A DNA stretch of 21,402 nucleotides, taken from positions 1 through 21,402 of IMG/VR virus record IMGVR_UViG_3300030419_004081. One strand, written 5' to 3'. Made by a program: the position numbers and the translations under genes. Below the pieces are notes generated by a model that was not told the DNA's origin, searched no databases, and saw nothing but the letters and a program-made list of their open reading frames with translations. Source of the stretch: a virus. Of the stretch, positions 1 to 21,402 are shown in pieces; position 1 is the first letter of the stretch; each line of letters begins with the position of its first letter.

Positions 1-1293
1 GGCGCACTAATCGTTGCACCAAAAGGTGTTTACAAAAACTGGATAGCACAAGAGATACCAACACATTTACCTGACCATATACAATGTCGAACGTTTCAAT
101 GGGTTGCTCCATCATCACGAACCAAAGAAGATCAAGAACTGTTGAGTCAATTGTATCAAGACACACGTGATCCGTCGTTGACTTTGTTTGTCATGAACAT
201 CGAAGCGTTCTCTTCTAAACCTGGACTTGAAGAAGCCACTAAGTTTTTATCTGCATATCGTGCGATGATGGCAATCGATGAAAGCACAACAATAAAAACA
301 CCATCTGCTAAACGAACCAAAAATGTCATAGCAGTCAGTCGTTATGCGTATTACAAACGAATCATGACCGGCAGTCCTGTCACCAAAAGCCCTCTTGACT
401 TGTATTCACAGTGTGAGTTTTTAGATCCTGACTTACTGGGTCACAGCTCGTACTATACGTTTCGTGCACGCTATGCGAATATGCAAACAATTAACGTTGG
501 CGGTCGTTCGGTAAGCATTGTCAGACCAAACAACAGCTATCGTAATCTTGGTGAGCTGTCAGATACCGTTGGTCGTTTTTCGTATAGAATACTCAAAGAA
601 GATTGTTTGGATTTACCAGACAAGGTATTTGAAAAACGAATTGTTGAGCTGACCAAAGAACAAAAGAAAGCATACGACATGATGCGAACAATTGCACTTG
701 CCGAACTTGACGGCAAAGTTTGTTCGACCGTGAATGTGTTGACACAGTTGCTTCGATTGCATCAGATAACTTGTGGCCATTTTAAGGCAGATGATGGCAC
801 AATTAAGCACTTAAAAAACAATCGACTTGATGAATTGATGGCACTTTTAGAAGAAACAGAGGGCAAGGTTATAATCTGGGCAAACTATGTCGAGGATATA
901 AAAAATATAGTCGCGACTCTGAAAAAAACGCACGGAGAGGCCTCTACAGTCGAATATCACGGGTCAGTAGACCAAAGGGTTCGCCAGAAGCAGATTGCTC
1001 TGTTTCAAGAGAAAAACGGCCCTGCGCGCTATTTCGTTGGAAACCCACAGACGGGTGGCTATGGAATCACGCTCACAGCTGCAAACACGGTAGTATACTA
1101 CTCTAACAACTATGACCTTGAAAAAAGACTGCAGTCCGAAGACCGAGCACACAGAATAGGGCAGACAAATAAGGTCACCTATGTTGACCTGATATGTGAA
1201 AAGACTGTTGATGAAAAAATTGTAAAGGCGTTGCGTAATAAAATTAATGTGGCGAATGAAATACTCGGGGAAGATTTGAAGAGTTGGATCTAA
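1..1293 (+). CDS. SNF2-family DNA helicase/ATPase, 5'-truncated at window edge
   Basis: The frame is open from base 1 to a TAA at 1291, giving 430 visible residues; the Walker A region lies beyond the left edge. The residues before the first internal TTG (LIVAPKGVYKNW) already form SNF2 motif Ia, so translation does not begin inside the window. Seen in order: motif II as DEST at about residues 93-96 followed by IKTPSAKRTK; motif III as MTGSP; then helicase lobe 2 with VIIWANYVEDI, YHGS, GGYGITLTAANTV and motif VI QSEDRAHRIGQ, which is diagnostic of SNF2 proteins. SNF2-like proteins in phages are usually assigned to DNA replication, recombination or remodelling; the exact job is inference. DEST replaces the usual DEAH/DEGH. 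It is the only + strand gene and converges on the structural operon, overlapping its last gene by 4 bp (1290-1293), so it probably belongs to the early/replication side. Confidence 0.93.
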   Translation, partial: GALIVAPKGVYKNWIAQEIPTHLPDHIQCRTFQWVAPSSRTKEDQELLSQLYQDTRDPSLTLFVMNIEAFSSKPGLEEATKFLSAYRAMMAIDESTTIKTPSAKRTKNVIAVSRYAYYKRIMTGSPVTKSPLDLYSQCEFLDPDLLGHSSYYTFRARYANMQTINVGGRSVSIVRPNNSYRNLGELSDTVGRFSYRILKEDCLDLPDKVFEKRIVELTKEQKKAYDMMRTIALAELDGKVCSTVNVLTQLLRLHQITCGHFKADDGTIKHLKNNRLDELMALLEETEGKVIIWANYVEDIKNIVATLKKTHGEASTVEYHGSVDQRVRQKQIALFQEKNGPARYFVGNPQTGGYGITLTAANTVVYYSNNYDLEKRLQSEDRAHRIGQTNKVTYVDLICEKTVDEKIVKALRNKINVANEILGEDLKSWI

Positions 1294-1520
1294 AGTATCT
1301 CTGCGATAAAATAGATAATACCAAGAATAATAGATATGGCTGCAAACGATGCTGCAGCACCCATAAACCATGTCATCATTTGGCGTAGTTCGAATGTGTG
1401 TTTGTTGATGCGTTCTTGGTGATTGTTTAAGTTGTCCAACTTCTCTTCAAATATTTTATAACGAAGCTCGCACTCTTTTAGATGAGCCTCAAGCGCGTAC
1501 TTTGTGTTATCGTCCGTCAT
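1290..1520 (-). CDS. Small coiled-coil plus single-TM protein, possible holin-like
   Basis: A 76-aa protein. Residues about 5-46 are charged and heptad-like (LKECELRYKIFEEKLDNLN), consistent with a coiled coil. Residues about 50-75 form one hydrophobic segment (GAAASFAAISIILGIIYF) ending two or three residues from the C-terminus. This layout, cytoplasmic helix plus C-terminal membrane anchor, resembles XhlA-type phage lysis accessory proteins, but no specific motif proves it. The ATG shares ATGA with the stop of the 1507-aa gene (1517-1520), and an AGAGGG ribosome-binding site lies inside that gene at 1526-1531, so it is translationally coupled. It is the last gene of the leftward operon. Last position in a late operon fits lysis, but no endolysin is visible nearby. 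A structural membrane-contact role is equally possible. Confidence 0.72.
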   Translation of the reverse strand: MTDDNTKYALEAHLKECELRYKIFEEKLDNLNNHQERINKHTFELRQMMTWFMGAAASFAAISIILGIIYFIAEIL

Positions 1521-10054: not shown

Positions 10055-10186
10055 TTATTCCTTTAAATCTACAAATTTAAAATCGTCTGGCGGTAATTGT
10101 TTTGATTCTTTACCAGGACATGCCATGGTTGTACATGTTTTACCATCTTCAACAGTTTGTCCACAATGTTCACATTTAGTGCTCAT
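10055..10186 (-). CDS. 43-aa Cys4 zinc-ribbon-like microprotein
   Basis: ATG at 10184-10186 shares ATGA with the stop of the 508-aa gene, and TAA ends the frame at 10055. The 43-residue product starts MSTKCEHCGQTVEDGKTC and has four cysteines in the arrangement CxxC-x9-C-x4-C (Cys5, 8, 18, 23), with His7 inside the first pair. This is the pattern of a minimal zinc ribbon or knuckle. The C-terminal half (PPDDFKFVDLKE) is acidic. Exact overlap with the upstream stop, a following gene with a ribosome-binding site inside its last codons, and a coherent metal-ligand pattern all argue that it is real. Function unknown: it might bind nucleic acid, a virion protein or a host factor. Zinc binding itself is inference. 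Confidence 0.78.
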   Translation of the reverse strand: MSTKCEHCGQTVEDGKTCTTMACPGKESKQLPPDDFKFVDLKE

Positions 10187-11709
10187 GTGTTTCTCAATCC
10201 ATCTGGTTGCATGTTAAATCGATGGTCGCCCATACGCCAAAAAGAACTGGTCGCATTGCTTGATACCACCATCGACACTTGTCGTCCACGTGCACGTATG
10301 GTCTGGTGTGTTGTGCCTGTGGCTGATGTAATTGTTTCTTCTGTTCGTTGTGTGCCGTTTGGATGATCTCTAAACTTTAGTGTGACTGTGACATCACCTA
10401 CTTGATCATTGAAGTCAGGTATAAAATCACTGATATACATCATTTGTTCGCCGTCCGGCGGCAAGTCAATATCACCTGATGTTAGTGTGCACTCCATAGC
10501 CGAACCGTCGTCATCTGTGCCTGATTCGTGTTTAAATATTACAGAGCTGGATGCTGCAAGAGAACTTGCAAGCGGGTTATCATAGATACCGACCGGCGCC
10601 CAAGCTCCTCTGGCCAATGTGCCTACAGACCATGTGTTTTCTAAATAATTAAATATGACATAGTTTGTAATATCGTCTGATGCATCATTAGATCCTGTTG
10701 GATAGAACCACCAGACCTCGTTAAATTTAACATTGAGTGCTGCAAAACATTTTAGTTTTTGTTGTTTGGTAAGATTGTCAAACACATGTCGCTCCACTGT
10801 GCATGGTATGCTCTGCACTTGCCCACGATAAGCATAGAAACCATCATCGCCCATCCAATAAGCTGTGCCGTTATGTTCAACAACAGCGTTTGGTCCAACA
10901 AGTCCTGCGTTTTCCGCTAGTGTTTGAAAGGCATAAACATCTGGTTGTCCAACAAATGTCATAGAAAAAACAGTCGTGTCAGAAAACAATAAAATATTAC
11001 CTTTGGTTCTAACCGCACCAAGAAGCAGGTTGCCGCCTTGTAATTCTACAGCACCTGCAAAGTTGTCGAGTGTTGCTGTAAAATCATTGTCTGTTTCCAA
11101 ATCAGAAAAAGCCACACGCATTGGTGCATCGTTAGTGCCGTCGTGTGCACCATATAAAATAACTTGTCTTGATTGTTGGTTGACGATCACACCGTTGGCC
11201 GATGACGGTATACTGCTGCCCGATGCAGCTGTCACAGCAGCTGCGTTTGTGCTTGCATCACCTTGATATGCGCTCAAGTCTAATTTGTATAGTTTGCCAC
11301 CTATCTTATTAACACAGATTAAATCTTCACCAAACGTGTCCATTGTCCAAATGCCAGCAAATGTAAATACACCAGAACTGACCGTTGTGTGTTGTGCACC
11401 TGCCGAATAGCTTGATCCAGGTGTAATGTCTACATAACTACCTGCACCATCATCGTATAAATATAAATGACTGTGTGTTCCTATACCGATGTATCGTTTG
11501 TTATTAGCCACTTGACCACGGAATGGAAGTAGTGTTCTAACAACACCGCTTGCAATCGTATCCGTATCGAGTTTTGCCCAACCACCTAGTTTTTCTGCAC
11601 GACCTTTTAGAAAACGTATTTTGTTAGCGTCAACATACTTGCCCTCTTGTGAGTAGACTGTGTCATCCTTGAAGATACCAGGCTGTATTTGCATCTTTGA
11701 TAAAGGCAT
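10183..11709 (-). CDS. Tail hub / DNA-stabilisation-like beta-propeller protein (508 aa)
   Basis: The N-terminus (MPLSKMQIQPGIFKDDTVYSQEGKY) leads into KIRFLKGRAEKLGGW (30-44) and a series of strand-turn repeats, such as RYIGIGTHSHLYLYDDG, GNILLFSDTTVFSMTFVG and AYWMGDDGFYAYRG. This pattern is familiar from podoviral proteins annotated as tail or packaged-DNA stabilisation proteins of the P22 gp10 type; T7 gp12 plays a comparable nozzle role. The regular aromatic strands suggest a beta-propeller core, with a C-terminal beta-domain that includes an RGRQVSMVV strand. It probably forms part of the tail tube or hub below the adaptor. The ATG at 11709 follows the upstream TAA directly, with AAGGA a few bases before. 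The family assignment is recognition by pattern, not by alignment. Confidence 0.78.
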   Translation of the reverse strand: MPLSKMQIQPGIFKDDTVYSQEGKYVDANKIRFLKGRAEKLGGWAKLDTDTIASGVVRTLLPFRGQVANNKRYIGIGTHSHLYLYDDGAGSYVDITPGSSYSAGAQHTTVSSGVFTFAGIWTMDTFGEDLICVNKIGGKLYKLDLSAYQGDASTNAAAVTAASGSSIPSSANGVIVNQQSRQVILYGAHDGTNDAPMRVAFSDLETDNDFTATLDNFAGAVELQGGNLLLGAVRTKGNILLFSDTTVFSMTFVGQPDVYAFQTLAENAGLVGPNAVVEHNGTAYWMGDDGFYAYRGQVQSIPCTVERHVFDNLTKQQKLKCFAALNVKFNEVWWFYPTGSNDASDDITNYVIFNYLENTWSVGTLARGAWAPVGIYDNPLASSLAASSSVIFKHESGTDDDGSAMECTLTSGDIDLPPDGEQMMYISDFIPDFNDQVGDVTVTLKFRDHPNGTQRTEETITSATGTTHQTIRARGRQVSMVVSSNATSSFWRMGDHRFNMQPDGLRNT

Positions 11710-12132
11710 TTAACTAATCCTTATCAAAGCTGTTGTTGCAGATGCCGATGGTAAAGATACGGTTAGCGTGCCTCCAGATACAGACTTGGTGCCACCAAAA
11801 TCTAACACAGCGATCGCACGATTACTCGCTGATGAATTGTAGATAAGTGCCCCAGCAGCGTCAGATATAGTTGCGCTTGAAAAAGACACATCATCAAAGT
11901 CCACAAAAGCCACTGTGCCAGATGATGACACAGCAACGTTTGATATGGTTGCACCACCCGATGAGTAGTTGGTGCCGCTTGATTCGTTGGTTGTAGAAAA
12001 AGCAGTGGTCGTTGGCCCTAGCGTGGCGCTCGATGTATACAGGGCAAGTTTAAGTGTATGCCCATCAAGATCGTGTAGACCTTTCAGGAGTTCTTCTTTA
12101 AATGAATTGCATACCGCTTGTGTTATTGCCAT
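11710..12132 (-). CDS. Conserved marine-phage beta-rich virion protein (140 aa)
   Basis: I place the start at 12132 (MAITQAVCNSFKEELLKGLH), not at an in-frame ATG 33 bases upstream, because TAGGAG at 12138-12143 is five bases from the former. The N-terminal helix is followed by HTLKLALYTSSATLGPTT, TNESSGTNYSSGGATISNV, and strands ending VLDFGGTKSVSGGTLTVSLP. This is a recognisable, frequent family in marine tailed phages (MAITQA-x-C-x-SFK-x-ELL...LALYTS), normally annotated as hypothetical or structural. It is beta-rich and probably a small virion protein; no enzymatic residues are evident. Its TAA abuts the ATG of the 508-aa gene, which suggests coupled expression with the tail hub protein. 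Confidence 0.82.
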   Translation of the reverse strand: MAITQAVCNSFKEELLKGLHDLDGHTLKLALYTSSATLGPTTTAFSTTNESSGTNYSSGGATISNVAVSSSGTVAFVDFDDVSFSSATISDAAGALIYNSSASNRAIAVLDFGGTKSVSGGTLTVSLPSASATTALIRIS

Positions 12133-12137
12133 ATAAT

Positions 12138-12143
12138 CTCCTA
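12138..12143 (-). promoter_or_regulatory. Ribosome-binding site overlapping stop (TAGGAG)
   Basis: The TAG stop of the 79-aa gene (12141-12143) forms the first half of TAGGAG. It lies five bases before ATG 12132 and decides the start of the 140-aa gene against the longer alternative at 12165. Confidence 0.8.
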
Positions 12144-12239
12144 TGCAGCACTGATCTCCGACCAAGATTCTGTGTTTGATGAAGCTGATATACTAGACCA
12201 AGACTCAGCATTTGCTGACGCCGATATATCAGCCCAAAA
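12141..12239 (-). repeat. Three tandem 36-bp coding repeats (12-aa Trp-Ile unit)
   Basis: The C-terminal third of the 79-aa gene consists of two full and one shortened 12-codon units with conserved Trp, Ile, Ser-Ala-Ser and Asn. Period is exactly 12 residues by the Trp and Ile positions. Confidence 0.8.
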
Positions 12240-12380
12240 CTCTCGACCTACATCTGGGCTGCCTCCAAATGATACTACACCAAAAGCCACCGCACCAAAA
12301 GCAGAAGTTTCAAACTCGGTCGCAATATCTGTGCCGATTGCCTCTAATACAAATACTGGTGACCAATTTTCTGTTGCCAT
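12141..12380 (-). CDS. Small Trp-repeat protein (79 aa)
   Basis: The first 45 residues (MATENWSPVFVLEAIGTDIA) are followed by three copies of a 12-residue unit in which Trp falls at 49, 61 and 73 and Ile at 52, 64 and 76, with SAS-x-N between units. Short proteins with Trp-x-x-Ile repeats of 10-12 residues occur in marine tailed phages. The regular spacing suggests a beta-solenoid-like or extended binding repeat. The start at 12380 overlaps the stop of the 56-aa ORF as TAATG, and its TAG builds the ribosome-binding site for the next gene. Function unknown; a minor tail or fibre-associated protein is an inference from position between the fibre array and the tail hub. Confidence 0.75.
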   Translation of the reverse strand: MATENWSPVFVLEAIGTDIATEFETSAFGAVAFGVVSFGGSPDVGREFWADISASANAESWSSISASSNTESWSEISAA

Positions 12381-12550
12381 TAGTTAATTTTTTCCTCTTC
12401 TTTTTCCTCTTCTTTTTTCAACTCTGCTAGCTCCATTTGAGTTGTAATCAAATCAGCTTGTAGCTTGGTGTTTAAATCCAAAGCATCGTTTCTTTGTTTC
12501 GTTAACAACGCGATGACGTTGTTGACGTATTTAGATTGTTTGTCGTTCAT
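12380..12550 (-). CDS. Small coiled-coil protein (56 aa) with Glu/Lys tail
   Basis: ATG at 12550 is preceded by AAAGGAAG, and the frame ends with TAA at 12380-12382, which overlaps the ATG of the 79-aa gene as TAATG. The product (MNDKQSKYVNNVIALLTKQR...) is helical with heptad-like leucines from about residue 12 to 44 and ends in KKEEEKEEEKIN. It is too short for a domain call. The exact junctions on both sides and the good ribosome-binding site support coding. A trimeric coiled-coil assembly factor or a small fibre-associated chaperone would fit the location directly after the fibre array, but that is inference. Confidence 0.75.
   Translation of the reverse strand: MNDKQSKYVNNVIALLTKQRNDALDLNTKLQADLITTQMELAELKKEEEKEEEKIN
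12389..12412 (-). repeat. Two perfect 12-bp tandem copies
   Basis: On the + strand TTTTTCCTCTTC is repeated twice without change. On the coding (-) strand it encodes the EEEKEEEK tail of the 56-aa protein. It is a candidate slippage site that could change tail length by four residues without a frameshift. Confidence 0.85.
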
Positions 12551-12574
12551 ATTTCTTCCTTTCGTGGTTAATAA

Positions 12575-12868
12575 TTATCCTCCTAATTTATCGTGCAAAG
12601 CTATTTGATGTGCTTTAAAACTGTCTTTAACATCATCAGTCCAAACAACATCGGCTACTGCTTTTATCTCTGCATCCTCAGAGGACATATCAGTGTCAAC
12701 CCAGTTTTTAGAAGCATCTATGTGTCCAGATTCAAAAATTTTTCTAGAATGTTTTCTTGTTATCTCAGTTCCGTCTTCTTTGATAACAGTGTCAATTCTA
12801 ACTTGAACATGCTTAAATGGGCCAACCACCTCTATTTTTGATATCTCTGTTTCTTTAGTTATTGCCAT
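12575..12868 (-). CDS. MAITKE-family small protein, copy C (97 aa)
   Basis: One of three paralogues in the window. It begins MAITKETEISKIEVVGPFKHVQVR, carries an IKEDG turn, a DTDMSSEDAEIKA acidic segment and VWTDDVKDSFKAH near the end. This is a common small family in marine tailed phages that I know only as hypothetical, typically beside tail-fibre genes. It follows the 314-aa fibre gene, with AAAAGGAG at 12877-12884 in a 17-base gap, a strong ribosome-binding site like those of the other two copies. A fibre-assembly chaperone, fibre-cap or adaptor subunit matched to its neighbouring fibre is a reasonable inference. The sequence does not show mechanism. Confidence 0.78.
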   Translation of the reverse strand: MAITKETEISKIEVVGPFKHVQVRIDTVIKEDGTEITRKHSRKIFESGHIDASKNWVDTDMSSEDAEIKAVADVVWTDDVKDSFKAHQIALHDKLGG

Positions 12869-12876
12869 TGTTTTTC

Positions 12877-12884
12877 TCCTTTTA
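12877..12884 (-). promoter_or_regulatory. Strong ribosome-binding site, MAITKE copy C
   Basis: AAAAGGAG lies eight bases before ATG 12868, in a short spacer between the 314-aa fibre gene and its partner. Confidence 0.8.
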
Positions 12885-12885
12885 A

Positions 12886-13830
12886 TTATGATGTATGATA
12901 ACTTATACTTAGATTAATAGCCAGGTTAGAATCAAACTGTGCCAGTGCTGCGTTTGCTAATGCTGTTGTATCATGTCTATCAAAATACAATCTAGCTAAA
13001 CCAGAATACACATTAATGCAAAAAAGATTTGAGTTTACGCTTGCACCTAAAATTTGCACTTCACCAGTTCCAGTGTCGGCATCCTCTGTTTGTGCGGCCT
13101 GTGCAAAAGGTAAATCTATATAACCGATGCCTGAGGCACTACTATAAGCGTTTACTTTAATTTGACCCATTATATGAACAAGTTTACCAACTTTAATATA
13201 ATGTAGTGTATCGTTAGAAGTGTTTAAACCCCAACTACCACTTCCAGCGTAAGTTGTGGTAACTTGAAAATCACCTTCTTCATAGTCATCAAGTAAATTA
13301 GACGCTGTTTCAGAAGTTACTCCGAGATAAATACCATCACCCGATTGTGGAAAGTGTAATCCGTTTGCTGTTAATTTCAAAAGATCGTTGCCTCCAGCTT
13401 TAAAATGTATTTCATCATCAGTGTCTGCAGTGATTGATGTGTCTGCATCCGCGTCTAATATTAATTCTTGTCCATTAACATCTAATGTTCCAGGTGTAAC
13501 TAAGTTACCAGATAGTTTTGCACTTGTAACAGACGCATCAGTCGGTGTCACCGTGCCGCCATTATCTGAACCTAGTAGTATGGCAAAGAAACTTGTGTTG
13601 GCAGCAGGTGCCGTTGTGAATGTTAGTGTGCTACCTGATACGGTGAAGTCTGTGCCTGGCTTTTGTATTACACCACCAAGAGATAGTAGTATTTGATTCA
13701 CGTCACCGACGCTCACATTGGTCGAGTTGACCTGCATCGTGTGCGTGGTATCAGAACCGTCGAACCCTGATGAAATGTCATCGAGTTGTCTGAATGCTCC
13801 TGTGCGTAAATCTCTTCCTATGTATGCCAT
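12886..13830 (-). CDS. Tail-fibre-like protein (314 aa) with DYEEG module
   Basis: Residues 1-88 form a virion-attachment-type N-terminal domain (MAYIGRDLRTGAF, ...VIQKPGTDFTVSGSTLTF) closely similar to that of the 353-aa fibre. Residues about 115-150 contain LDVNGQELILDADAD and ADTDDEIHFKAGG, also shared with the 353-aa protein. A conserved NLLDDYEEG (178-186) opens the distal beta-rich domain, which extends to the C-terminus and includes the YIKVGKLVHIMGQIKV strand. The distal domain is probably the receptor-contacting part. The start overlaps the stop of the 57-aa ORF (TAATG). The 97-aa MAITKE protein follows. Function as a short fibre or receptor-binding protein is an inference from domain order and company. 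Confidence 0.82.
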   Translation of the reverse strand: MAYIGRDLRTGAFRQLDDISSGFDGSDTTHTMQVNSTNVSVGDVNQILLSLGGVIQKPGTDFTVSGSTLTFTTAPAANTSFFAILLGSDNGGTVTPTDASVTSAKLSGNLVTPGTLDVNGQELILDADADTSITADTDDEIHFKAGGNDLLKLTANGLHFPQSGDGIYLGVTSETASNLLDDYEEGDFQVTTTYAGSGSWGLNTSNDTLHYIKVGKLVHIMGQIKVNAYSSASGIGYIDLPFAQAAQTEDADTGTGEVQILGASVNSNLFCINVYSGLARLYFDRHDTTALANAALAQFDSNLAINLSISYHTS

Positions 13831-14003
13831 TAATCGGCCTCCTCTATTGTGTTACCGTCTATCTTCTCCCACTCAAGAACGTTTTGATAGTCTGAGTTAT
13901 CTTCGTTAAGTGGCACAAATTGCACAATGTCATTATCTGTAACAACTTTATAACCGTTATGTTTATCTTGAATGTCCAATGTTTTTTTTACTGATTTATA
14001 CAT
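13830..14003 (-). CDS. 57-aa protein with tail-fibre-assembly-like DYQ...LEW...GNTIEEAD motif
   Basis: ATG at 14003 lies two bases after the TAA of the 383-aa gene, with AGGAT before it; TAA at 13830-13832 overlaps the next ATG as TAATG. The product starts MYKSVKKTLDIQDKHNGYKV and contains QFVPLNEDNSDYQ, VLEW and GNTIEEAD. The pattern VP-x-(D/N)-x-x-N-x-DYQ-x-x-L-x-W...GNT-x-E-x-AD is characteristic of small proteins next to phage tail fibres, including the N-terminal part of tail-fibre-assembly (Tfa)-type proteins. It occupies the place that MAITKE proteins take beside the other fibres. An assembly or chaperone role for a neighbouring fibre is inferred; the family recognition itself is fairly secure. 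Confidence 0.8.
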   Translation of the reverse strand: MYKSVKKTLDIQDKHNGYKVVTDNDIVQFVPLNEDNSDYQNVLEWEKIDGNTIEEAD

Positions 14004-14005
14004 AA

Positions 14006-15157
14006 TTATCCTATCTCCGCACTTGCTTCATATTGAAATTCGTATGTTTCGTCAGCTGCTCCCGCATCAGTCATAGTAAAGTATCTACCTATACTTGTTT
14101 CAGATGTATTTCCTATTGAGGAAATTGTTTTATCAGCACCAGAGCTGTAGTTGTTTATTTCTCCAGAGGCGCCACCATCTGAAGTATAAAAAGTCATGGT
14201 TGGAGCGGCCCTTTTTCTAACGCTGAATCTACTATCAAGTATTTTAATTCTTGTTGTTGTTCCTTCGTTTAACAACTCAGCAAGGTGAGTGCCTTCATAA
14301 GTAGTCGATGTTCCAGGAACAACAGATAAGTTATAACTTTTTTCATAGTATCTTTGACATCTTTGTAATTGAACACTGTGAGGTAAATGTTCAAAGTCTG
14401 ATGCTGCATCTCCAACTTCTAATTGAACTCCTGTTATATATAAATTGTTACTCGTGCTGCTGTAAAAATTTACAAAGGTAATGTCTGAGTCTGCAAAATA
14501 AGCTGAGCTTGTCCATGTTGGAGTTCCGCTTTGACTACCTGTGTAGTTACTGCCCCAAGCAAGTCCCCAAAATATTTGAAAACCTCTTCCGTTATCATTA
14601 TTTATTGCACCACCACTTGCAGTTATAAGTGAGGTAGAACCCTCTGTGGGAGTCCAAGTAATTGTTTTTTTCTCCCAAGTGTTGGCACTTGATATGCTGT
14701 AACTTAACGGCAAATAATAAACAGTGTTATCATCTTTTTTTGCAGTGAGTGGAAAGTTACCCGTTAGGTTTGATTTTACCCAAAAAGAAAGAGTTAAAGT
14801 TTTAGCAGCGCTTGTGCCATATAAAAATCTACGACAGTCCTGAGCTTCAATATTATAAAAAAAATAAGACCTTTGCCCAGCCGCAATAGAGGTGTCTGCT
14901 GTTGTGCAATTTAATTCTAATGCTCTAGCTTGACCTGTAGTTGCTTGGTCTGCAACTGACAAATTATCAAGCTCAGAAGTTGCTGCTCCATCTGTGCCTT
15001 CTGAAAAACCAAAACGATCCACTGTTTGATAACCAGAACCTAATGTGGTAGCAGAAGTTGTTCTTTGAAAAATTTGCATGTCACCGTTAATAATTACATT
15101 TTTAGAACCTCCACCTACTCCCTCTACAAATGGTGCTTCTACTTTTGTCTGGCTCAT
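14006..15157 (-). CDS. Tail protein with glycan-binding-like jelly-roll domain (383 aa)
   Basis: The layout matches a family of phage tail proteins with a carbohydrate-binding-module-like fold. SKNVIINGDMQIFQRTTS (18-35) and GYQTVDRFGF open the domain; TLSFWVKSNLTG forms a central strand; YITGVQLEVGDAASDFEH (240-257) and CQRYYEKSYN (267-276) end it; a C-terminal beta-domain of about 110 residues follows. In this family the NLIINGxMQ...ITGVQLEVG...CQRYY frame recurs in proteins binding or decorating surface glycans. It lacks the MxYIG N-terminal domain of the 314- and 353-aa proteins, so it must attach differently. AAGGAT overlapping the upstream stop precedes ATG 15157. Glycan binding is an inference from family resemblance. 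Confidence 0.84.
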   Translation of the reverse strand: MSQTKVEAPFVEGVGGGSKNVIINGDMQIFQRTTSATTLGSGYQTVDRFGFSEGTDGAATSELDNLSVADQATTGQARALELNCTTADTSIAAGQRSYFFYNIEAQDCRRFLYGTSAAKTLTLSFWVKSNLTGNFPLTAKKDDNTVYYLPLSYSISSANTWEKKTITWTPTEGSTSLITASGGAINNDNGRGFQIFWGLAWGSNYTGSQSGTPTWTSSAYFADSDITFVNFYSSTSNNLYITGVQLEVGDAASDFEHLPHSVQLQRCQRYYEKSYNLSVVPGTSTTYEGTHLAELLNEGTTTRIKILDSRFSVRKRAAPTMTFYTSDGGASGEINNYSSGADKTISSIGNTSETSIGRYFTMTDAGAADETYEFQYEASAEIG

Positions 15158-15166
15158 ATTATATCC

Positions 15167-15418
15167 TTATATACCTTCGTTATCTTTAAATGTTTTCCAA
15201 GCTGCTTTTACATCGTCTGTCCACACAGTGTTACAAATGGCTTTTACATCCGCGTGTTCATTAGTTATATCAGCGTCTGGTGCTAAAACATGTCTGTGAT
15301 ATTTTCTAGAAAGCTCTACATCATCCTCTTTGACTATGGTGTCGGTTCTCACTTGAACGTGTTTGTAAGTTCCCACAACTTCTATTTTTGCTATTTCTGT
15401 TTCTTTTGTTAATGCCAT
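15167..15418 (-). CDS. MAITKE-family small protein, copy B (83 aa)
   Basis: Starts MALTKETEIAKIEVVGTYKHVQVR, the closest relative of copy C, then IVKEDDVELSRKYHRHVL, DADITNEHADVKA and VWTDDVKAAWK. It is the shortest copy: the middle segment between the RK strand and the acidic DADI segment is about 12 residues shorter than in copies A and C. A very strong AAAGGAGG at 15424-15431 precedes it, in a gap after the 353-aa fibre gene. As for its paralogues, the role is unknown; position suggests a partner of the 353-aa fibre just upstream or of the 383-aa protein just downstream. Confidence 0.78.
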   Translation of the reverse strand: MALTKETEIAKIEVVGTYKHVQVRTDTIVKEDDVELSRKYHRHVLAPDADITNEHADVKAICNTVWTDDVKAAWKTFKDNEGI

Positions 15419-15423
15419 TTTTT

Positions 15424-15431
15424 CCTCCTTT
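15424..15431 (-). promoter_or_regulatory. Strong ribosome-binding site, MAITKE copy B
   Basis: AAAGGAGG matches the 16S 3' end better than most sites in this operon and sits five bases before ATG 15418. Confidence 0.82.
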
Positions 15432-15435
15432 AATA

Positions 15436-16497
15436 TTATGCCACCCTATACGTGGCTGTAAAAATAAGTTGTCCGTTTCCTGTTAGTTCACCAACTGTCA
15501 TTGATGAAGTGCCTGTAGCAACATCAAACATTGTTAATTGAATTTGATTTGTGCCTGAATTAACATATCCACTTGCAGCATGACCAGCTGTGATACTCGC
15601 AGAGTCAAGATAACCGATTGTTATTGCTTGGTAGCCAACATTACCAGAGACCGCAACATAGGGTAATCCATCAACTAAAACTGAATCACTATCAGTTAAA
15701 CCTTCAGAAGAGCCAACTAAATATGCTTTCACAGTAACAATATTACCTATTCTGGTATAATTACCTGTTTGATAACTACTGTTCATAGAAAAGTGACCAG
15801 CAGAACTTCTAAAAGTTCCTGTCCATGTGCCTTCTTCGTAATCATCCAATAACTCTGATGCCATGCCACTAGCATCTGCATAAGTGCCTCCCGCTGCTGA
15901 TGCAAAACTTATGCCGTGTCCACTGGCAACACTTAAATCACCGTCTGATAGTGTCAGCCCATTATTAAGTGTGGCAGCACCTGCATCAGACATGTCGAGA
16001 GTGAGAGCTGTAACAGCAGAACCTCCATCGTTACCTTTGAATAATATATCTTTATCCTGAACACCTTGCGTAATAACTGCATCACTTGATGAATTAGTTA
16101 TATTTAAAATATCTGCGTCACCAACTTTAATATCTATCTGATCATCGGTGTCCGCGCTTATTGTTGTATCGGCATCTTCATCGAGAATCAGTTTGTCTGA
16201 TGCACCGTTGAGATCTAACTCAGAAGCACCACCGATGGGCAGTGGACCGCCCATGTGTATTGCATAGATTACATCACCATCAGCCACAGCTGTGCCAACG
16301 ATTGTTAGTGTTGTGCCTGATACAGTAAAGTTGGTTGTAGGTTTTTGTATAACGTTGTTGATGACAACGATTAGTGTGTCTTCGGAGAACGGCTCTTTGC
16401 TGAGTGTAAAAGTCGTGGCGCTACCATCGCCAGTAAAACTGTCGGTAGTAAAACCTTGAAAAGTATCAGCTGGTAAACCTTGTCCGATGTAACTCAT
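15436..16497 (-). CDS. Tail-fibre-like protein (353 aa) with shared repeat and DYEEG modules
   Basis: Modular. Residues 1-87 are the attachment-type domain (MSYIGQGLPADTF, VIQKPTTNFTVSG) shared with the 314-aa protein. Residues about 95-130 have LILDEDADTTISADTDDQID, also shared. Residues about 128-175 (NSSSDAVITQ, DKDILFKGNDGGS, LTLDMSDAGAAT) match the repeat unit of the 1058-aa fibre. DGDLSVASGHGISFAS and MASELLDDYEEGTW (212-225) match the start of the 184-aa protein. The distal ~130 residues are beta-rich and unique, so probably the receptor-contacting part. It follows copy A of the MAITKE family by three bases and is followed by copy B. Assigned as a tail fibre from domain order; function inferred. 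Confidence 0.83.
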   Translation of the reverse strand: MSYIGQGLPADTFQGFTTDSFTGDGSATTFTLSKEPFSEDTLIVVINNVIQKPTTNFTVSGTTLTIVGTAVADGDVIYAIHMGGPLPIGGASELDLNGASDKLILDEDADTTISADTDDQIDIKVGDADILNITNSSSDAVITQGVQDKDILFKGNDGGSAVTALTLDMSDAGAATLNNGLTLSDGDLSVASGHGISFASAAGGTYADASGMASELLDDYEEGTWTGTFRSSAGHFSMNSSYQTGNYTRIGNIVTVKAYLVGSSEGLTDSDSVLVDGLPYVAVSGNVGYQAITIGYLDSASITAGHAASGYVNSGTNQIQLTMFDVATGTSSMTVGELTGNGQLIFTATYRVA

Positions 16498-16500
16498 AAA

Positions 16501-16788
16501 TTACCCTAGTTTATTAGCTATTAAATGTGCTTTCCAAGCTGCTTTAACAGAATCAGTCCACACAAGATTTGCAATGCCTTTAACTTCATCCGACTCTGAT
16601 GATATATCAGTGTCAACTAAATTATCACTAGCATCTAGTTTGCCACAATTTAAAACATAACGATTAGTGTAAGATTTGCTTATTACAACATCGTCTTCTT
16701 TAATAGTTGTAAGTTCTCTAACTTGAATATGTTTAAAATCACTTACTATTTCTATTTTATCTTGTTTTACTTCTTTTGTTATTGCCAT
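16501..16788 (-). CDS. MAITKE-family small protein, copy A (95 aa)
   Basis: Starts MAITKEVKQDKIEIVSDFKHIQVR and contains TIKEDDVVISKSY, LDASDNLVDTDISSESDEV and VWTDSVKAAWKAHL. It is the most diverged of three paralogues but keeps the same order: N-terminal strand pair, KED turn, acidic DTDIS segment, VWTD-x-VK helix. AAAGGAGG at 16794-16801 precedes ATG 16788 by five bases. It lies between the 184-aa and 353-aa fibre-like genes and ends three bases before the latter. Family function unknown to me; an assembly or adaptor partner of a fibre is suggested by the repeated pairing. Confidence 0.78.
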   Translation of the reverse strand: MAITKEVKQDKIEIVSDFKHIQVRELTTIKEDDVVISKSYTNRYVLNCGKLDASDNLVDTDISSESDEVKGIANLVWTDSVKAAWKAHLIANKLG

Positions 16789-16793
16789 TGTTT

Positions 16794-16801
16794 CCTCCTT
16801 T
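16794..16801 (-). promoter_or_regulatory. Strong ribosome-binding site, MAITKE copy A
   Basis: AAAGGAGG begins one base after the TAA of the 184-aa gene and is five bases from ATG 16788, repeating the arrangement at copies B and C. Confidence 0.82.
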
Positions 16802-16802
16802 A

Positions 16803-17357
16803 TTATGCTATGTATGATCCCTGTATATATAATTGACCTGAGCTGCTTGGTTGACCAATTCCACCTCCAGCGTTATCTTTAGATGCTTGCATACCAGCTG
16901 TTGAGGCACCTTCACTTGTTAAAAAATATGGTGCGGTAGCATCGTTGGTAAAATCAACATTGTATGTCCCTACGCCTATAATGCACCTGCCTTGTTGGTC
17001 TGTCAAATTTCCCACCGTAAAAGGCAAAGTCATCGTTAAACCTCCAGATCCCCAACTTCCTGAAAAACTGCTAATAACTATAACGCCTTGAATAGAAACT
17101 CTTCTACCAACTTTTGTGTAAGCTAGTGTGTCATAAGATGAATTTAAAGCTATGCTTGTCACATCCCCAGCACTATCTGTTAAAGTTGGTGTATACGAAC
17201 CCTCTTCATAATCGTCAAATAATTCAGATGCCATGGTGGTTCCATCTGAAGTAGATGCAAAACTTATACCATGCCCATCAGCCAGTGTTATGTCACCATC
17301 GGCAACATTTAAGCCTGAATTTAAAACTATACCATTAGTTGGAATCGTAGCTGCCAT
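16803..17357 (-). CDS. Short fibre-tip-like protein (184 aa) with DYEEG module
   Basis: The start at 17357 (MAATIPTNGIVL) is preferred over an in-frame ATG at 17390: it is one base after the upstream stop and has GGAGA at 17367-17371. The N-terminus (GLNVADGDITLADGHGISFAS, then MASELFDDYEEG at 42-53) matches the middle of the 353-aa protein. It has no attachment domain of the MxYIG type. The remaining ~130 residues are beta-rich (YTKVGRRVSIQGVIVI, GGLTMTLPF). It may be a fibre tip that docks on the large 1058-aa fibre, or a remnant of a longer fibre now encoded separately. No frameshift remnant joining it to its neighbours is visible. Confidence 0.78.
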   Translation of the reverse strand: MAATIPTNGIVLNSGLNVADGDITLADGHGISFASTSDGTTMASELFDDYEEGSYTPTLTDSAGDVTSIALNSSYDTLAYTKVGRRVSIQGVIVISSFSGSWGSGGLTMTLPFTVGNLTDQQGRCIIGVGTYNVDFTNDATAPYFLTSEGASTAGMQASKDNAGGGIGQPSSSGQLYIQGSYIA

Positions 17358-17358
17358 C

Positions 17359-17718
17359 TTACGTAATCTCCATAAAAGACAACGCCGCATCTATTGATGA
17401 TGCTGTGTCTGATGTAATCTTTAATACATCTCCTGCTTCCATAACCACTTTACTGCCTGAAAGTATCTCCAAAGAACCTCCCGCAGGTATTGGTGCATTT
17501 GTTACTAATTCAACGTTGTCGTTGTTAAAATCACTGCCTGCACCATCATCATGATCTGTGTTACTTTCTAAAGTAACAGTTGCATTGATCGCTGAACCTG
17601 TCACGTTTCCTAGAATTAAACCAAGTATAATCGTAGTTGTGCTTGACCCTACGGTGTATAAAGTTACAGCACTGGTGCCTACCGCGTCCGCTGTATGTAA
17701 TCTAAAAGTATTAGCCAT
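17359..17718 (-). CDS. Conserved marine-phage beta-sandwich-like virion protein (119 aa)
   Basis: Begins MANTFRLHTADAVGTSAVTL, then TTTIILGLILGNVTGSAINATVTLE, PIPAGGSLEIL, MEAGDVLKITSD and a terminal strand AALSFMEIT. This is a frequent small family in marine tailed phages, usually annotated as hypothetical. The beta-strand pattern and last 40 residues resemble each half of the 223-aa protein at 9133-9804. AAGGAGA, merged with the stop of the 1058-aa gene, lies six bases before the ATG. It may be a virion decoration or fibre-base protein; being translated between the large fibre and the fibre-tip gene hints at tail assembly, which is inference. Confidence 0.8.
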   Translation of the reverse strand: MANTFRLHTADAVGTSAVTLYTVGSSTTTIILGLILGNVTGSAINATVTLESNTDHDDGAGSDFNNDNVELVTNAPIPAGGSLEILSGSKVVMEAGDVLKITSDTASSIDAALSFMEIT

Positions 17719-17724
17719 TTATCT

Positions 17725-17731
17725 CTCCTTA
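17725..17731 (-). promoter_or_regulatory. Ribosome-binding site fused to stop codon (TAAGGAG)
   Basis: The TAA of the 1058-aa gene (17729-17731) starts TAAGGAG, six bases from ATG 17718. Same arrangement as at 6049-6055. Confidence 0.85.
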
Positions 17732-20700
17732 TCCTAGTGCAATAGCCAAAGCTGTTACGTCGCTTGAAGCTGCAAACTGCTCGCTAAGCACGCTGACGTC
17801 CATTCTTTTAATGGTTCCGCCATCACTTATTAATAACTCATCTGTCGTCGCAAGTCCAGATGTTAGAGCCGTTTGCCCTGATATTATGTTGTCATTCAAC
17901 ATTCCTGATTCTATGGCATCATTAGCGATTGTAAGCGCTCCAGCATCGCTTGCCGTAGCATCGCCTGACATGGCAGAATATATATATTTTTTGACTCTAG
18001 TTAAATCCGATCTTCTGTTTGTGCCGCCACCACCATCATCCACAATAATTTCATCAGCATCTACTAGATCAGCTCCAATATCTGTGCCGCCATCAATATC
18101 TAAATCATCTATCGCAATGCTACCATCAGGAAACACAGGTGCCTGTGTGAAAGTGACAACACCATTTGATGCGATAGCAATAGCGTCAGCGTCAGAAGCA
18201 GAACCAATTTGTCCTCCATCTGCGATTCTTATGTCATGGTTCAATACCAGTGTTCCAGCGTCTGACATGTCAAATGTAGCAGCTGTGATTGCAGAGCCAC
18301 CATCATCACCTTTGATAATTAAATCTTTGTCTTGTGTGCTGACCGTTAAGACGGCATCAGTTGAACTGTTGCTAATATCAAGAACAGATGTACCACCATC
18401 CTTAAATGTTATATTTGCTCCATCTGCATCAAGTATAATATCACCTGCAACATCAACAGTTAGATCACCTGACGATAAATCAATCTCCGTGCCATCAATT
18501 GTAATGTTATCAACAGTAACACCACCATCTGCATCAAGAGATGTAGCACTGATTGCGCCAAAAGCAACATCGCCAGCACTGCCACTAAATACTTCAGAGG
18601 AGTTACTGGCATCTGCAATAAATGTAAATTTGCTTGCACTATCATCGTAACCAAAGAAACCAACCTTGGCCGCTGAACCATTGTGATATCTAAACTCAAT
18701 ACCTCTGTCTTTGTTATCATCAGATCCAGGAGCTGTATCGCCACCCAGTGTAAAGATAGGATCATCAATAGTAACAGTCGTGCTGTTGACCGTTGTCGTT
18801 GTACCATTGACTGTAAGATCACCACCAACGACCACTGCGCCATTGAATGTTGCCTTACCAGCGAGAGCCATATCAATATCAAGAGCTGTAATGGCAGACG
18901 ATCCGTCTGTTCCTTTGATTGCAAAGTTTTTATCAGCAACACTTACTGTGAATTCAACGTCACTAGAATTGTTTGCAATATCTAAAATAGATGTGCCGCC
19001 ATCTTTAAATATTATGTTAGCACCGTCGGCATCAAGTATAATGTCAGCGCCTGCGTCCAATGTAATGTCACTAGAGTTATCTATCTCTGCAATGACCGGA
19101 GTTGTTAATGTTTTATTTGTGAGTGTGTCTGTAGTTGCTCTACCAACAAGGGTGTCGGCTGATGCAGGAAGAACAACTGTTACGTTTCCAGAATAAGCAG
19201 AGTGTGGTGCCGCTTGTAATTGTGTGTAGTGGGCGTTAGATGACTCACAATAAAATCTAATATAAGACTCAGCACCACTGTTTTTAATAGAGATGGCACC
19301 AGACTGCATATCGATACCATTGGAACCGTCTACTCGAACGACACCTGTGCCGTTAGGTGTTAGTGTAATATTACCGTTTGATACGGAGACAATGTCCTCA
19401 CCGTTTACATCCAGTGATCCGCCAAGTTGTGGAGTTGTGTCCTCAACAACATTTGATATTGCTGCACCAGATACGGCAAGACCAGATACAATTGTGCTTC
19501 TTGTAATTTTTTTAAGTCCGCCACCTGATGTGTCAACAGCTAAGAATACATCATCGTTTGCAACTGTTGATATTTCAGATAGACCACCAACAGCAATAGA
19601 GTTAAAGTTTGTGCCATCTGCTATAAGTAAATTACCGGCTGTGTTTGTTCCCATGGTAATATCATCACCTGATACTGTTAGATCACCAGTCACTACAACA
19701 TCGCCGCTAAACGTGGCTTTACCAGCCAGCGCCATATCGATGTCTAAAGCTGTTATGGCTGAAGAACCATCTGTTCCCTTAATCGCAAAGTTTTTATCTG
19801 CTGTGCTGACAGTAAGTTCGACGTCAGTAGAACTGTTCGCTATGTCAAGTATCGATGTGCCGCCGTCTTTAAAGGTAACGTTACCGCCATCTGCATCTAA
19901 AATAATGTCTCCAGCCACATCAACAGTTAGATCGCCAGAAGACAAATCAATCTCTGTGCCGTCAATTGTAATATTGTCAACAACCACACCGGCGTTTGCT
20001 GTAACAACACCTGAAACACCAAGAGTGCTTGCCATATCAACAGCGCCATCAATATCGACTACATCTAAATTAGCTGTGCCATCAACATCCACATCACCTG
20101 AAATATCAAGCTCAGTTGCAACTATTTTATCGTTAAATGTTGCAGCTCCTGCAGCTGACATGTCTAAAGTTAAAGCAGTTATTGTTGATCCGCCATCGTT
20201 ACCTTTAACAATAAAATCTTTGTCAGATACTTTTGTTTCCAAAATAACATCACTTGATGAGTTGTGTATACGCATCATCTCTGTGCCATCATCTTCATAG
20301 ACAACACCACTACCAGCTGTGCCAGCGTCAAGTGTAATACCACCAGCAGATTCTAAATTTATTGAGTCAACAGCTGTGCCATCAGAAACTAAATCTAAAT
20401 CTCCATCAGCATTTGAATGTATAAATGTTCCTGTATCATTAAATGTTAGTTTGTTTGTAGAGTTTAGTGTAAGCCCTGTACCATCTGTGTGTGTTAAAGT
20501 GGTGTCAGAGTCTGCACCAAACTTTAATACTGCAGAGTCTGATCCAAGTATAAGATCGTCTGGGAGTGTGACATCAGCGTTGTTATCTTCAAACACAGCT
20601 TTGCTTGCTGGCTGTGTACAAAATACATCCTTTGTGCCTGCACTAAAACTTACTGCGCTGTTGCTGTTAGAGCTTGATAAAATAGTTGTTCTTGAAAGTG

Positions 20701-20905
20701 TGTCTGTTGATGCATCAGTGACTGTGCCAATACCTATTTCAAACTCTGCTGCTGTTCTGTGAACGATTGCGTAATAAGTTACGTTACCATCACCAATACC
20801 AGATACAAAAGTTCTAAAACCAGATACAGCACCAGCTAAATCAAGGGTGCCTGTCCCTGTGGTTGTCGTTGTTTCTCTTACTCTGTCCGCTACTGCAAAT
20901 GCCAT
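17729..20905 (-). CDS. Large repetitive tail fibre (1058 aa)
   Basis: Residues 1-106 are a well-recognised marine phage fibre N-terminal domain (VADRVRETTTTTGTGTLDLAGAV, IGDGNVTYY, GIGTVTDASTDTLSRTT, GTKDVF), thought to anchor the fibre to the tail. Most of residues 107-900 is Asp/Gly/Ser/Thr-rich beta-strand repeat, with four related units at about 202-258, 306-399, 611-688 and 794-888 (key residues: DIILDADG, FKDGGTS, ADKNFAIKG or DKD-x-x-x-KG, GS-x-ITA, DM). Between them, LTNKTLTTPVI near 580-590 is another common fibre motif. From about 930 the C-terminal part (LDIDGGTDIGADL, VKKYIYSAMSGDATASDAG) is a family-typical end region. No cysteine-rich or catalytic part is seen. Probably a trimeric adsorption fibre. 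It starts two bases after the adaptor gene stop, with only a weak ribosome-binding site. Confidence 0.88.
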   Translation of the reverse strand: MAFAVADRVRETTTTTGTGTLDLAGAVSGFRTFVSGIGDGNVTYYAIVHRTAAEFEIGIGTVTDASTDTLSRTTILSSSNSNSAVSFSAGTKDVFCTQPASKAVFEDNNADVTLPDDLILGSDSAVLKFGADSDTTLTHTDGTGLTLNSTNKLTFNDTGTFIHSNADGDLDLVSDGTAVDSINLESAGGITLDAGTAGSGVVYEDDGTEMMRIHNSSSDVILETKVSDKDFIVKGNDGGSTITALTLDMSAAGAATFNDKIVATELDISGDVDVDGTANLDVVDIDGAVDMASTLGVSGVVTANAGVVVDNITIDGTEIDLSSGDLTVDVAGDIILDADGGNVTFKDGGTSILDIANSSTDVELTVSTADKNFAIKGTDGSSAITALDIDMALAGKATFSGDVVVTGDLTVSGDDITMGTNTAGNLLIADGTNFNSIAVGGLSEISTVANDDVFLAVDTSGGGLKKITRSTIVSGLAVSGAAISNVVEDTTPQLGGSLDVNGEDIVSVSNGNITLTPNGTGVVRVDGSNGIDMQSGAISIKNSGAESYIRFYCESSNAHYTQLQAAPHSAYSGNVTVVLPASADTLVGRATTDTLTNKTLTTPVIAEIDNSSDITLDAGADIILDADGANIIFKDGGTSILDIANNSSDVEFTVSVADKNFAIKGTDGSSAITALDIDMALAGKATFNGAVVVGGDLTVNGTTTTVNSTTVTIDDPIFTLGGDTAPGSDDNKDRGIEFRYHNGSAAKVGFFGYDDSASKFTFIADASNSSEVFSGSAGDVAFGAISATSLDADGGVTVDNITIDGTEIDLSSGDLTVDVAGDIILDADGANITFKDGGTSVLDISNSSTDAVLTVSTQDKDLIIKGDDGGSAITAATFDMSDAGTLVLNHDIRIADGGQIGSASDADAIAIASNGVVTFTQAPVFPDGSIAIDDLDIDGGTDIGADLVDADEIIVDDGGGGTNRRSDLTRVKKYIYSAMSGDATASDAGALTIANDAIESGMLNDNIISGQTALTSGLATTDELLISDGGTIKRMDVSVLSEQFAASSDVTALAIALG
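18240..18525 (-). repeat. Fibre repeat unit R4
   Basis: Encodes about residues 794-888 of the 1058-aa fibre. It starts with the VDNITIDGTEIDLSSGDLTV block that is protein-identical to that of R2, and ends with a diverged DKDLIIKGDDGGSAIT segment. Limits are approximate. Confidence 0.8.
18842..19075 (-). repeat. Fibre repeat unit R3
   Basis: Encodes about residues 611-688. It lacks the VDNITIDG lead block but shares DIILDADGANI, FKDGGTSILDIAN and the ADKNFAIKGTDGSSAIT block with R2. Limits are approximate. Confidence 0.8.
19708..19990 (-). repeat. Fibre repeat unit R2
   Basis: Encodes about residues 306-399 and is the most complete copy: lead block, DIILDADGGNV, FKDGGTSILDIAN, DKNFAIKG and ALAGKATF. 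Limits are approximate. Confidence 0.82.
20131..20300 (-). repeat. Fibre repeat unit R1 (partial, diverged)
   Basis: Encodes about residues 202-258. It has NSSSDVILET, DKDFIVKGNDGGS and LTLDMSAAGAATFN, closer to the copy in the 353-aa fibre (about 15975-16110) than to R2 or R3. Confidence 0.72.
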
Positions 20906-20907
20906 AA

Positions 20908-21402
20908 TTAACTCGTAAAGCTGTTTGTCCGTCTAATCGCAAGTTCTTGATTAACACTCGCCACTGCCTCTTGATATCTTTTTTCATATAACTGAAGCAT
21001 CTGAGGGTTTTTATCATAAACCGCAGCCTCTATCAATGAACCATACAATAAAGCATCGTATGCGTTGTCTGTTAACCAGTTTGTTGTGTTGCTGCCTGAT
21101 AAAGAACTAAACCTTGTTCTATAGTTTATTTCAACTGTAAGAGCAGCACTTGGTGTTGGAGCAATAATATAAAAATCATTGTCCCAGTCTGCATAATATT
21201 TTGGCGTGCTTGTGCTTGTTCGTGTGGGCCAGTATTCGTTTATGTATCCAACGTCTCTGTATTCCAATGCTGTCCTGGCCGAGGCTGAGGACAGCACTTG
21301 AAAAGAAATGATCGTGATTAGATCAGTCGGTTTCGTCACAAAGGCGTCACCAATAGTTAATGTAGCGTTTTGATGTTTGTATAGTTCAGGAACATTTATC
21401 AG
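20908..21402 (-). CDS. Head-tail adaptor/connector protein, 5'-truncated at window edge
   Basis: The frame is open from the right edge to a TAA at 20908, giving 164 visible residues; a GTG at 21339 is internal, because the residues before it (VPELYKHQNATLTIGDAF) continue the same domain. The visible part includes SSASARTALEYRDVGYINEYW, then YYADWDNDFYIIAPTPSAALTVEINYRTRF, NWLTDNAYDALLYGSLIEAAVY, and a helical end LYEKRYQEAVASVNQEL. The IAPTP...YR...W...DALLYG-x-LIEA...Y-x-x-RY pattern is one I associate with podoviral adaptor proteins of the T7 gp11/P22 gp4 type, which sit between portal and tail tube. The gene ends two bases before the large fibre, consistent with a head-to-tail gene order. 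Confidence 0.82.
   Translation of the reverse strand: MINVPELYKHQNATLTIGDAFVTKPTDLITIISFQVLSSASARTALEYRDVGYINEYWPTRTSTSTPKYYADWDNDFYIIAPTPSAALTVEINYRTRFSSLSGSNTTNWLTDNAYDALLYGSLIEAAVYDKNPQMLQLYEKRYQEAVASVNQELAIRRTNSFTS

What the first reader, a model, noticed from the sequence alone, without database searches (positions are those of the whole stretch)
12575..17357. Alternating array of four fibre-like genes and four small partner genes
In transcription order the region reads fibre (184 aa), small (95), fibre (353), small (83), fibre (383), small (57), fibre (314), small (97). Three small genes are paralogues; the fourth carries a fibre-assembly-type motif. Most phages have one or two fibre genes with one assembly partner. 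A serial array with a dedicated small gene per fibre suggests a modular receptor-binding system in which fibre and partner are gained or swapped as a unit. The pairing is seen directly; the functional coupling is inference.
Basis: partly seen in the sequence, partly recalled or inferred. Interest (0 to 1): 0.75.

Follow-up and report, generated by a model that had tools for sequence, protein, structure and literature searches.

The report
Phage fibre heads with matching helper genes
A marine virus carries four tail-fibre genes, each followed by a small gene, and comparison with hundreds of related viruses indicates that each type of fibre head travels with its own type of small gene, most likely a folding helper, which would let these viruses change the part that recognises bacteria while keeping the rest of the fibre.

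Summary
The array is real: f1-s1-f2-s2-f3-s3-f4-s4 on the minus strand, 12575-17357. f1, f2 and f4 end in the same hypervariable receptor-binding head ('D', L-DDYEEG...Y-K-G...LPF). s1, s2 and s4 are one family (phrog_6228, function unrecorded). f3 and s3 are an unrelated pair.

In 174 independent viral loci, 141 of 162 S genes directly follow a D-headed gene (about 21 expected after shuffling gene order). On two nearly constant fibre anchors the head class predicts the next gene: D then S 14/15, other heads then S 0/43. C1q heads take other small genes. Heads with a self-cleaving intramolecular chaperone (Peptidase_S74, Peptidase_G2) mostly take none. DNA breakpoints fit: when D is replaced by another class, head and small gene go together.

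Within the D class the pairing is not fibre-specific: S stays at 85% identity or more while heads fall below 45%, and there is almost no co-divergence. So S serves the head class.

Best explanation: S is a minimal trans-acting chaperone or cap for a Det7/TP901-1-like trimeric head, of unmatched sequence and fold. Folding activity and complex formation are inferred. Similar arrays exist, unremarked, in cultured marine phages (RB11-B, Melnitz, HTVC100P).

The parts
16803..17357 (-). f1: short fibre (184 aa), N-terminal stalk segment plus D head (16806-17234)
   Evidence: ORF; D-head alignment; AlphaFold model pLDDT 82, head Z 13.8 to tailspike 6f7d
16501..16788 (-). s1: S-family partner (95 aa), phrog_6228
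   Evidence: strong Shine-Dalgarno AAAGGAGG
15436..16497 (-). f2: anchored fibre (353 aa): anchor 16171-16497, D head 15439-15864
15167..15418 (-). s2: S-family partner (83 aa), phrog_6228; modelled
   Evidence: AlphaFold pLDDT 96, three long antiparallel strands plus two helices
14006..15157 (-). f3: unrelated fibre class C (383 aa), phrog_4492 tail fibre
   Evidence: first about 273 aa conserved at DNA level in relatives, C-terminal part replaced
13830..14003 (-). s3: T-family partner (57 aa) of class C fibres
   Evidence: T directly follows C in 46 of 51 cases; no Pfam or PDB match
12886..13830 (-). f4: anchored fibre (314 aa): anchor 13495-13830, D head 12889-13308
12575..12868 (-). s4: S-family partner (97 aa), phrog_6228; its stop codon is the 3' edge of the replaced block in relatives
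17359..17718 (-). p119: conserved gene just upstream of f1 (phrog_1276/26609)
17729..20905 (-). p1058: long structural fibre-like protein, 5' flank of the variable block; in L192/L199 its homologue is 1289/1367 aa with a different C-terminus
10183..12550 (-). conserved 3' flank of the variable block (p56, p79, p146, 508-aa stabilisation-type protein G508)

Best explanation
The region is a four-position receptor-binding block. Fibre genes keep a constant N-terminal anchor and carry exchangeable C-terminal heads, each head class with its own small partner gene. The S genes (s1, s2, s4; phrog_6228) are most likely minimal trans-acting fibre chaperones or transient caps. The N-terminal three-stranded sheet would bind the conserved frame of the D head (L-DDYEEG, Y-K-G, LPF, C-terminal Y), and the two C-terminal helices would help the head trimerise. 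S thereby replaces the self-cleaving intramolecular chaperone that other heads on the same anchors carry. Because S reads the conserved frame and not the variable surface, a lineage can change D heads and keep S, whereas changing to another head class means losing or replacing S. Shown: gene order, class-level coupling, breakpoints, the predicted D head fold and the predicted S fold. Inferred: physical binding, chaperone activity, whether S leaves the virion, and receptor binding.
For: Coupling in three separate samples: seeded on S, 72 of 86 directly follow a D head; seeded on the D head, 57 of 77 D genes are directly followed by S; annotated phage records, mostly cultured isolates, 11 of 12. 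Shuffled gene order gives 20.8 where 141 were seen. Fixed-anchor test: D then S 14/15, non-D then S 0/43, Fisher 1.5e-12; mutual information beyond all 20,000 within-slot permutations. Head classes by Pfam: Peptidase_S74, Peptidase_G2 (intramolecular chaperones) and C1q. Chaperone-bearing heads are followed by a small gene in 3 of 21 cases, other heads in 31 of 36 (Fisher 1e-7, from the table). Breakpoints: anchors 88-93% identical in DNA, head and s4 unrelated, identity resuming at s4's stop codon within about 20 nt. D head: Z 13.8 to a phage tailspike C-terminus (6f7d), about 6-7 to TP901-1 and p2 receptor-binding proteins and reovirus fibre heads. S: pLDDT 96, strands then helices, the same order as the Pam3 chaperone gp25 (PMC9608196). 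S is more conserved than the head in 98% of comparisons, which fits a helper and not the receptor-contacting part. S genes have stronger ribosome-binding sites than fibre genes.
Against: No binding, folding or virion data exist for any S protein. S has no sequence or fold match to any known chaperone. 16 single-D and 2 double-D loci lack S, some through contig ends. L288 has a D head without an adjacent S, though it carries S in slot 1. Three heads without a recognised intramolecular chaperone (class h1) have no small gene, and three S74 heads are followed by another small gene, m104. Contigs are related, so the P values overstate independence.
Confidence: 0.66

Rival explanations
1. S is a permanent virion component: a tip or cap protein that stays on the D head, like the distal gp38 of T2-type phages or Tfa of Mu, and contributes to adsorption.
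For: Class-level coupling is the same. Mu Tfa is reported to stay on the fibre (PMC10579305, PMC7289586), and transient caps are proposed for Alteromonas phages (PMC10579305).
Against: S is much more conserved than the head (median identity 47% against 27%) and stays the same while heads change, the reverse of what a receptor-specific adhesin should do.
Confidence: 0.2
2. S has no physical link to the head; it is a neighbour in the late operon, inherited with the D gene and useful as a homology arm for recombination that exchanges heads.
For: D-to-D exchanges do break at the fibre stop codon, with homology running on through S, so S does flank head exchange.
Against: D-S adjacency holds in phages of different lineages and across very divergent heads. 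S is absent after S74 and G2 heads on the same anchors, and C1q heads carry different small genes. When another gene lies between them S is still usually near D (12 D-X-S).
Confidence: 0.1
3. The four pairs arose by recent tandem duplication in this lineage, with no modular exchange.
For: s1, s2 and s4 are paralogues and f1, f2 and f4 share a head class.
Against: s1 and s2 have closer relatives in other viruses than in this genome (s1 76% to L272, s2 75% to L058, s4 60% to L017; between themselves 54-58%), and the heads are only about 31-33% identical to one another. Close relatives with up to 98% identity in G508 have quite different blocks.
Confidence: 0.04

Closest known systems
Tail fibre plus intermolecular chaperone modules of Alteromonas phages V22 and A5 (gp26/gp27, gp8/gp9; DUF4376), PMC7289586 and PMC10579305
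   Same: Chaperone gene directly downstream of the receptor-binding fibre; fibre and chaperone shared between distant phage families; chaperone compared to an intramolecular chaperone; proposed transient cap.
   Different: Those chaperones are 195-239 aa with a DUF4376 helical domain and occur as one pair; S is 83-97 aa, matches no Pfam family and occurs as three copies beside a second kind of pair. Chaperone activity is shown for V22, not for S.
Myocyanophage Pam3 fibre gp24 with chaperone gp25 (3:3 complex), PMC9608196
   Same: N-terminal beta domain that binds the fibre head, C-terminal helices that trimerise; S is predicted to have strands then helices.
   Different: gp25 is about 162 aa and related by structure to Mu Tfa; no sequence or fold match to S was found.
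Mu and P1 invertible fibre/chaperone cassettes and lambda/T4 Tfa-gp38 type chaperones (own knowledge, and as cited in PMC7289586)
   Same: Fibre C-terminus and its partner change together.
   Different: No inverted repeats here; change is seen between genomes by replacement, with several positions in series.
Intramolecular chaperones Peptidase_S74 and Peptidase_G2
   Same: They occupy the same position, at the C-terminus of fibres on the same anchors.
   Different: They are part of the fibre polypeptide and cleaved off; the D heads lack them and have a separate S gene.
Alternating fibre/small arrays in cultured phages: Synechococcus phage RB11-B, Methylophilales phage Melnitz-3, Pelagibacter phage HTVC100P
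   Same: Serial fibre/small genes, including D-S and C-T pairs.
   Different: Mostly one S per genome; annotated as hypothetical or, for some other small genes, tail assembly chaperone.

Membership tests
phrog_6228 (small phage protein, unknown function) | profile match over full length | tested here: met
   s1 4e-21, s2 5e-29, s4 8e-22; all 62 aligned relatives match
Tfa / DUF4376 / gp38-type intermolecular fibre chaperones | gene directly downstream of the receptor-binding fibre gene | tested here: met
Tfa / DUF4376 / gp38-type intermolecular fibre chaperones | sequence match to a curated chaperone family in Pfam | tested here: not met
   no relevant Pfam match for s1, s2, s4 or 62 relatives, nor for s3 or its 36 relatives; so S and T are not filed as members
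Tfa / DUF4376 / gp38-type intermolecular fibre chaperones | beta domain binding the head plus helical trimerisation domain | tested here: inconclusive
   S is predicted as sheet then two helices; best PDB Z 3.9, no chaperone listed
Tfa / DUF4376 / gp38-type intermolecular fibre chaperones | required for functional fibre | not testable with these tools
   needs expression or a deletion
Trimeric phage receptor-binding head (Det7-type tailspike C-terminus, TP901-1/p2 RBP head) | head fold | tested here: met
   f1 model residues 50-184: Z 13.8, rmsd 2.4, 123 aligned to 6f7d; Z 6-7 to TP901-1, p2 and reovirus heads; Foldseek E 1.5e-3, TM 0.55
Trimeric phage receptor-binding head (Det7-type tailspike C-terminus, TP901-1/p2 RBP head) | trimer, receptor contact | not testable with these tools
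   only monomer prediction available
Fibres with intramolecular chaperone (Peptidase_S74 / Peptidase_G2) | C-terminal self-cleaving chaperone domain | tested here: not met
   no such Pfam match in f1-f4, while relatives on the same anchors have them
Invertible fibre cassette (Mu G segment type) | flanking inverted repeats | tested here: not met
   no inverted repeats of 30 nt or more in 12100-21402

The most novel reading that the evidence does not exclude
phrog_6228 is a new family of trans-acting fibre chaperones with its own fold, generic for one hypervariable head class (D) found across marine and other phages. 'Variable head on a constant anchor with a generic helper', with self-chaperoned and helper-chaperoned heads competing for the same fibre positions, is a widespread way for phages to change receptor specificity.
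Probability: 0.5. Interest if true: 0.75.

Novelty: new variant of a known kind. Interest (0 to 1): 0.6.

Why it matters
It gives a testable function to a common but unnamed marine phage gene family. It also suggests a grammar for reading receptor-binding blocks from sequence: head class predicts partner class, and self-chaperoned heads have no partner. If right, it explains how abundant marine phages change the receptor-contacting part of their fibres quickly without rebuilding the assembly machinery, and it shows which fibre and small gene must be co-expressed to obtain active receptor-binding proteins from uncultivated viruses.

Tried and rejected
Fine co-divergence of head and S within the D class: Mantel r 0.088, swap test 4/12, so fibre-by-fibre dedication is rejected. 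Natural fusion of D head and S in one ORF: none found. PDB, Pfam and NCBIfam relatives of S: none; a weak or absent fold match does not show that the fold is new. s3 as a recognised fibre-assembly protein: no support (phrog_20370, unknown function, matches 16 of 36 relatives). Close DNA relatives among phage records: none. S in bacterial genomes: two scans found nothing, which may reflect short peptide patterns. Invertible element: no inverted repeats. Recent tandem duplication as sole origin: rejected.

Full report
WHAT IS THERE. The window is a 21,402-base uncultivated virus contig. Its structural genes lie on the minus strand. s1, s2 and s4 are 54-58% identical and belong to phrog_6228, a family without recorded function. 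f1, f2 and f4 end in one C-terminal domain, here 'D', with a conserved frame (L-DDYEEG, Y-K-G, LPF, C-terminal Y) around very variable sequence. f3 is an unrelated fibre class (C; phrog_4492) and s3 belongs to a different small family (T). f2 and f4 begin with anchor domains of known marine phage fibres (phrog_18673); f1 and f3 do not. No cultured phage is close: no DNA match, and the 508-aa neighbour is at most about 36% identical to proteins of phages such as DSL-LC04, HTVC023P and CRP-901. The 164-aa protein at the window's end matches the SU10 adaptor family, so a short-tailed phage is likely (inference).

IS THE PAIRING REAL? Three samples were used, then pooled. Seeded on S: 72 of 86 non-redundant S genes lie directly after a gene with a D head, two more are cut by contig ends, and no ORF holds both domains. 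Seeded on the D head: 57 of 77 D genes are directly followed by S, and at least five of the other 20 are followed by a gene that looks like a distant S (the resemblance is by eye). Twelve annotated phage records with an S gene (11 isolates or sequenced phage genomes and one uncultured fosmid phage), with hosts including Pelagibacter, Prochlorococcus, Synechococcus, Roseobacter and Methylophilales: 11 have D directly before S. Pooled over 174 independent loci: 141 of 162 S genes directly follow D, against 20.8 on average and 35 at most after shuffling gene order; 12 of the rest are D-X-S. Class C is followed by T in 46 of 51 cases.

NATURAL EXPERIMENT AT FIXED ANCHORS. Searching with the conserved neighbour G508 and with the two anchors gave relatives whose flanks and anchors match the window while the rest differs. 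On the f2 and f4 anchors, 58 distinct fibres were classified by head and by next gene: D then S 14 of 15, any other head then S 0 of 43 (Fisher 1.5e-12); mutual information 1.23 against a maximum of 0.66 in 20,000 permutations within slot. C1q heads (Pfam) are followed by small families m94 (9) or x105 (2); class h30 by its own small family (6 of 6). Heads with Peptidase_S74 or Peptidase_G2, which are intramolecular chaperones, mostly run straight into the next gene: 3 of 21 have a small gene, against 31 of 36 for the other heads (Fisher 1e-7; classes assigned by HMM and by Pfam on representatives). Contigs are related, so these P values are descriptive.

BREAKPOINTS. In L200, L202 and L195 the f4 anchor is 88-92% identical in DNA, then head and s4 are unrelated, and identity resumes at the stop codon of s4; L193, L192, L199 and L201 show the same right-hand edge within about 20 nt. 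In slot 2, L200 has the same anchor with an S74 head and no small gene, and homology resumes at the start of f3. In slot 3 the first 273 codons of f3 are kept and the rest, with most of s3, is replaced. By contrast, where one D head replaces another (slot 1 in L200, L337, L005; slot 2 in L163, L279, L298, L337) homology begins at or near the fibre's stop codon and runs through S. So S is exchanged with the head when the class changes and is kept when it does not.

CLASS-SPECIFIC, NOT FIBRE-SPECIFIC. Over 128 D-S pairs, median identity is 27% for heads and 47% for S; S is the more conserved in 98% of comparisons. In 70 contig pairs S is at least 85% identical while heads are below 45%. The Mantel correlation is 0.088 and the within-genome swap test 4 of 12. 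The window's f1 head is 58% identical to that of L107, yet their S proteins share only 40%. Loci with two to four D genes and one S exist. The three pairs of the window did not come from recent local duplication: s1 and s2 have nearer relatives in other viruses.

STRUCTURE. f1's head (residues 50-184, AlphaFold, mean pLDDT 82 for the chain) matches a phage tailspike C-terminal domain (6f7d, Z 13.8, rmsd 2.4, 123 residues) and, more weakly, TP901-1 and p2 receptor-binding heads and reovirus fibre heads. S (s2, pLDDT 96) is three long antiparallel strands followed by two helices, with no convincing PDB match (best Z 3.9) and no sequence match. Complexes could not be predicted here.

MECHANISM. 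The simplest reading is that D heads need help to trimerise and that S supplies in trans what S74 and G2 domains supply in cis. Published parallels: V22 gp27 is essential for functional gp26 fibres (PMC7289586); A5 and V22 chaperones resemble intramolecular chaperones and may act as transient caps (PMC10579305); Pam3 gp25 has a beta domain that binds the fibre and helices that trimerise (PMC9608196). S works like these but is not a member of their families by any test run here. Its conservation argues against S being the receptor-contacting adhesin. Exceptions remain: D genes without S, h1 heads without partner, and the m104 gene after some S74 heads.

VERDICT. Observation confirmed; interpretation partly supported and refined. 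A new variant of a known kind: the general principle (fibre plus downstream chaperone, exchanged together) is known, while the family, the class rule, the intramolecular/trans alternation on fixed anchors and the serial arrangement appear undescribed in the papers that could be searched.

Noticed in passing
L192 5576-8266, L199 6424-9138: Relatives with 98% and 89% identity in G508 carry a wholly different block between the same flanks (fibre-like 1289/1367 aa ending in a chaperone-like tail, then 202/195-118-237-268/283-69 aa), with no D or S.
   Followed up: partly
L188, L195, L292 (downstream of anchor f4 fibres); L210, L212, L213: A small family (about 100-104 aa, AKTWVSAIPKKNADGNV...) follows fibres that end in a Peptidase_S74-like domain, which should not need a helper. 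Unexplained.
   Followed up: no
L119, L127, L162: S lies one gene further on, with a pectate-lyase-like tailspike between the D-headed gene and S (D-X-S).
   Followed up: partly
window 16789-16806, 15419-15436, 12869-12886: S genes have strong Shine-Dalgarno sites: a match of 5 nt or more before 71% of S genes against 44% of D fibre genes over all loci, perhaps for excess synthesis of S.
   Followed up: partly
window 1-1293 (+): Fragment of an SNF2-type helicase (PF00176, PF00271) converging on the minus-strand structural genes.
   Followed up: no
window 1517-6040 (-): 1507-aa protein with no Pfam match and only a short phrog_22602 (virion structural protein) match: a probable large internal virion protein.
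   Followed up: no
L135, L145, L153, L158, L181: D-headed genes followed by 81-134-aa proteins that resemble S by eye (I.EFNV...KDG..I..SYWR) but are missed by the S profile: possible distant S family members.
   Followed up: no
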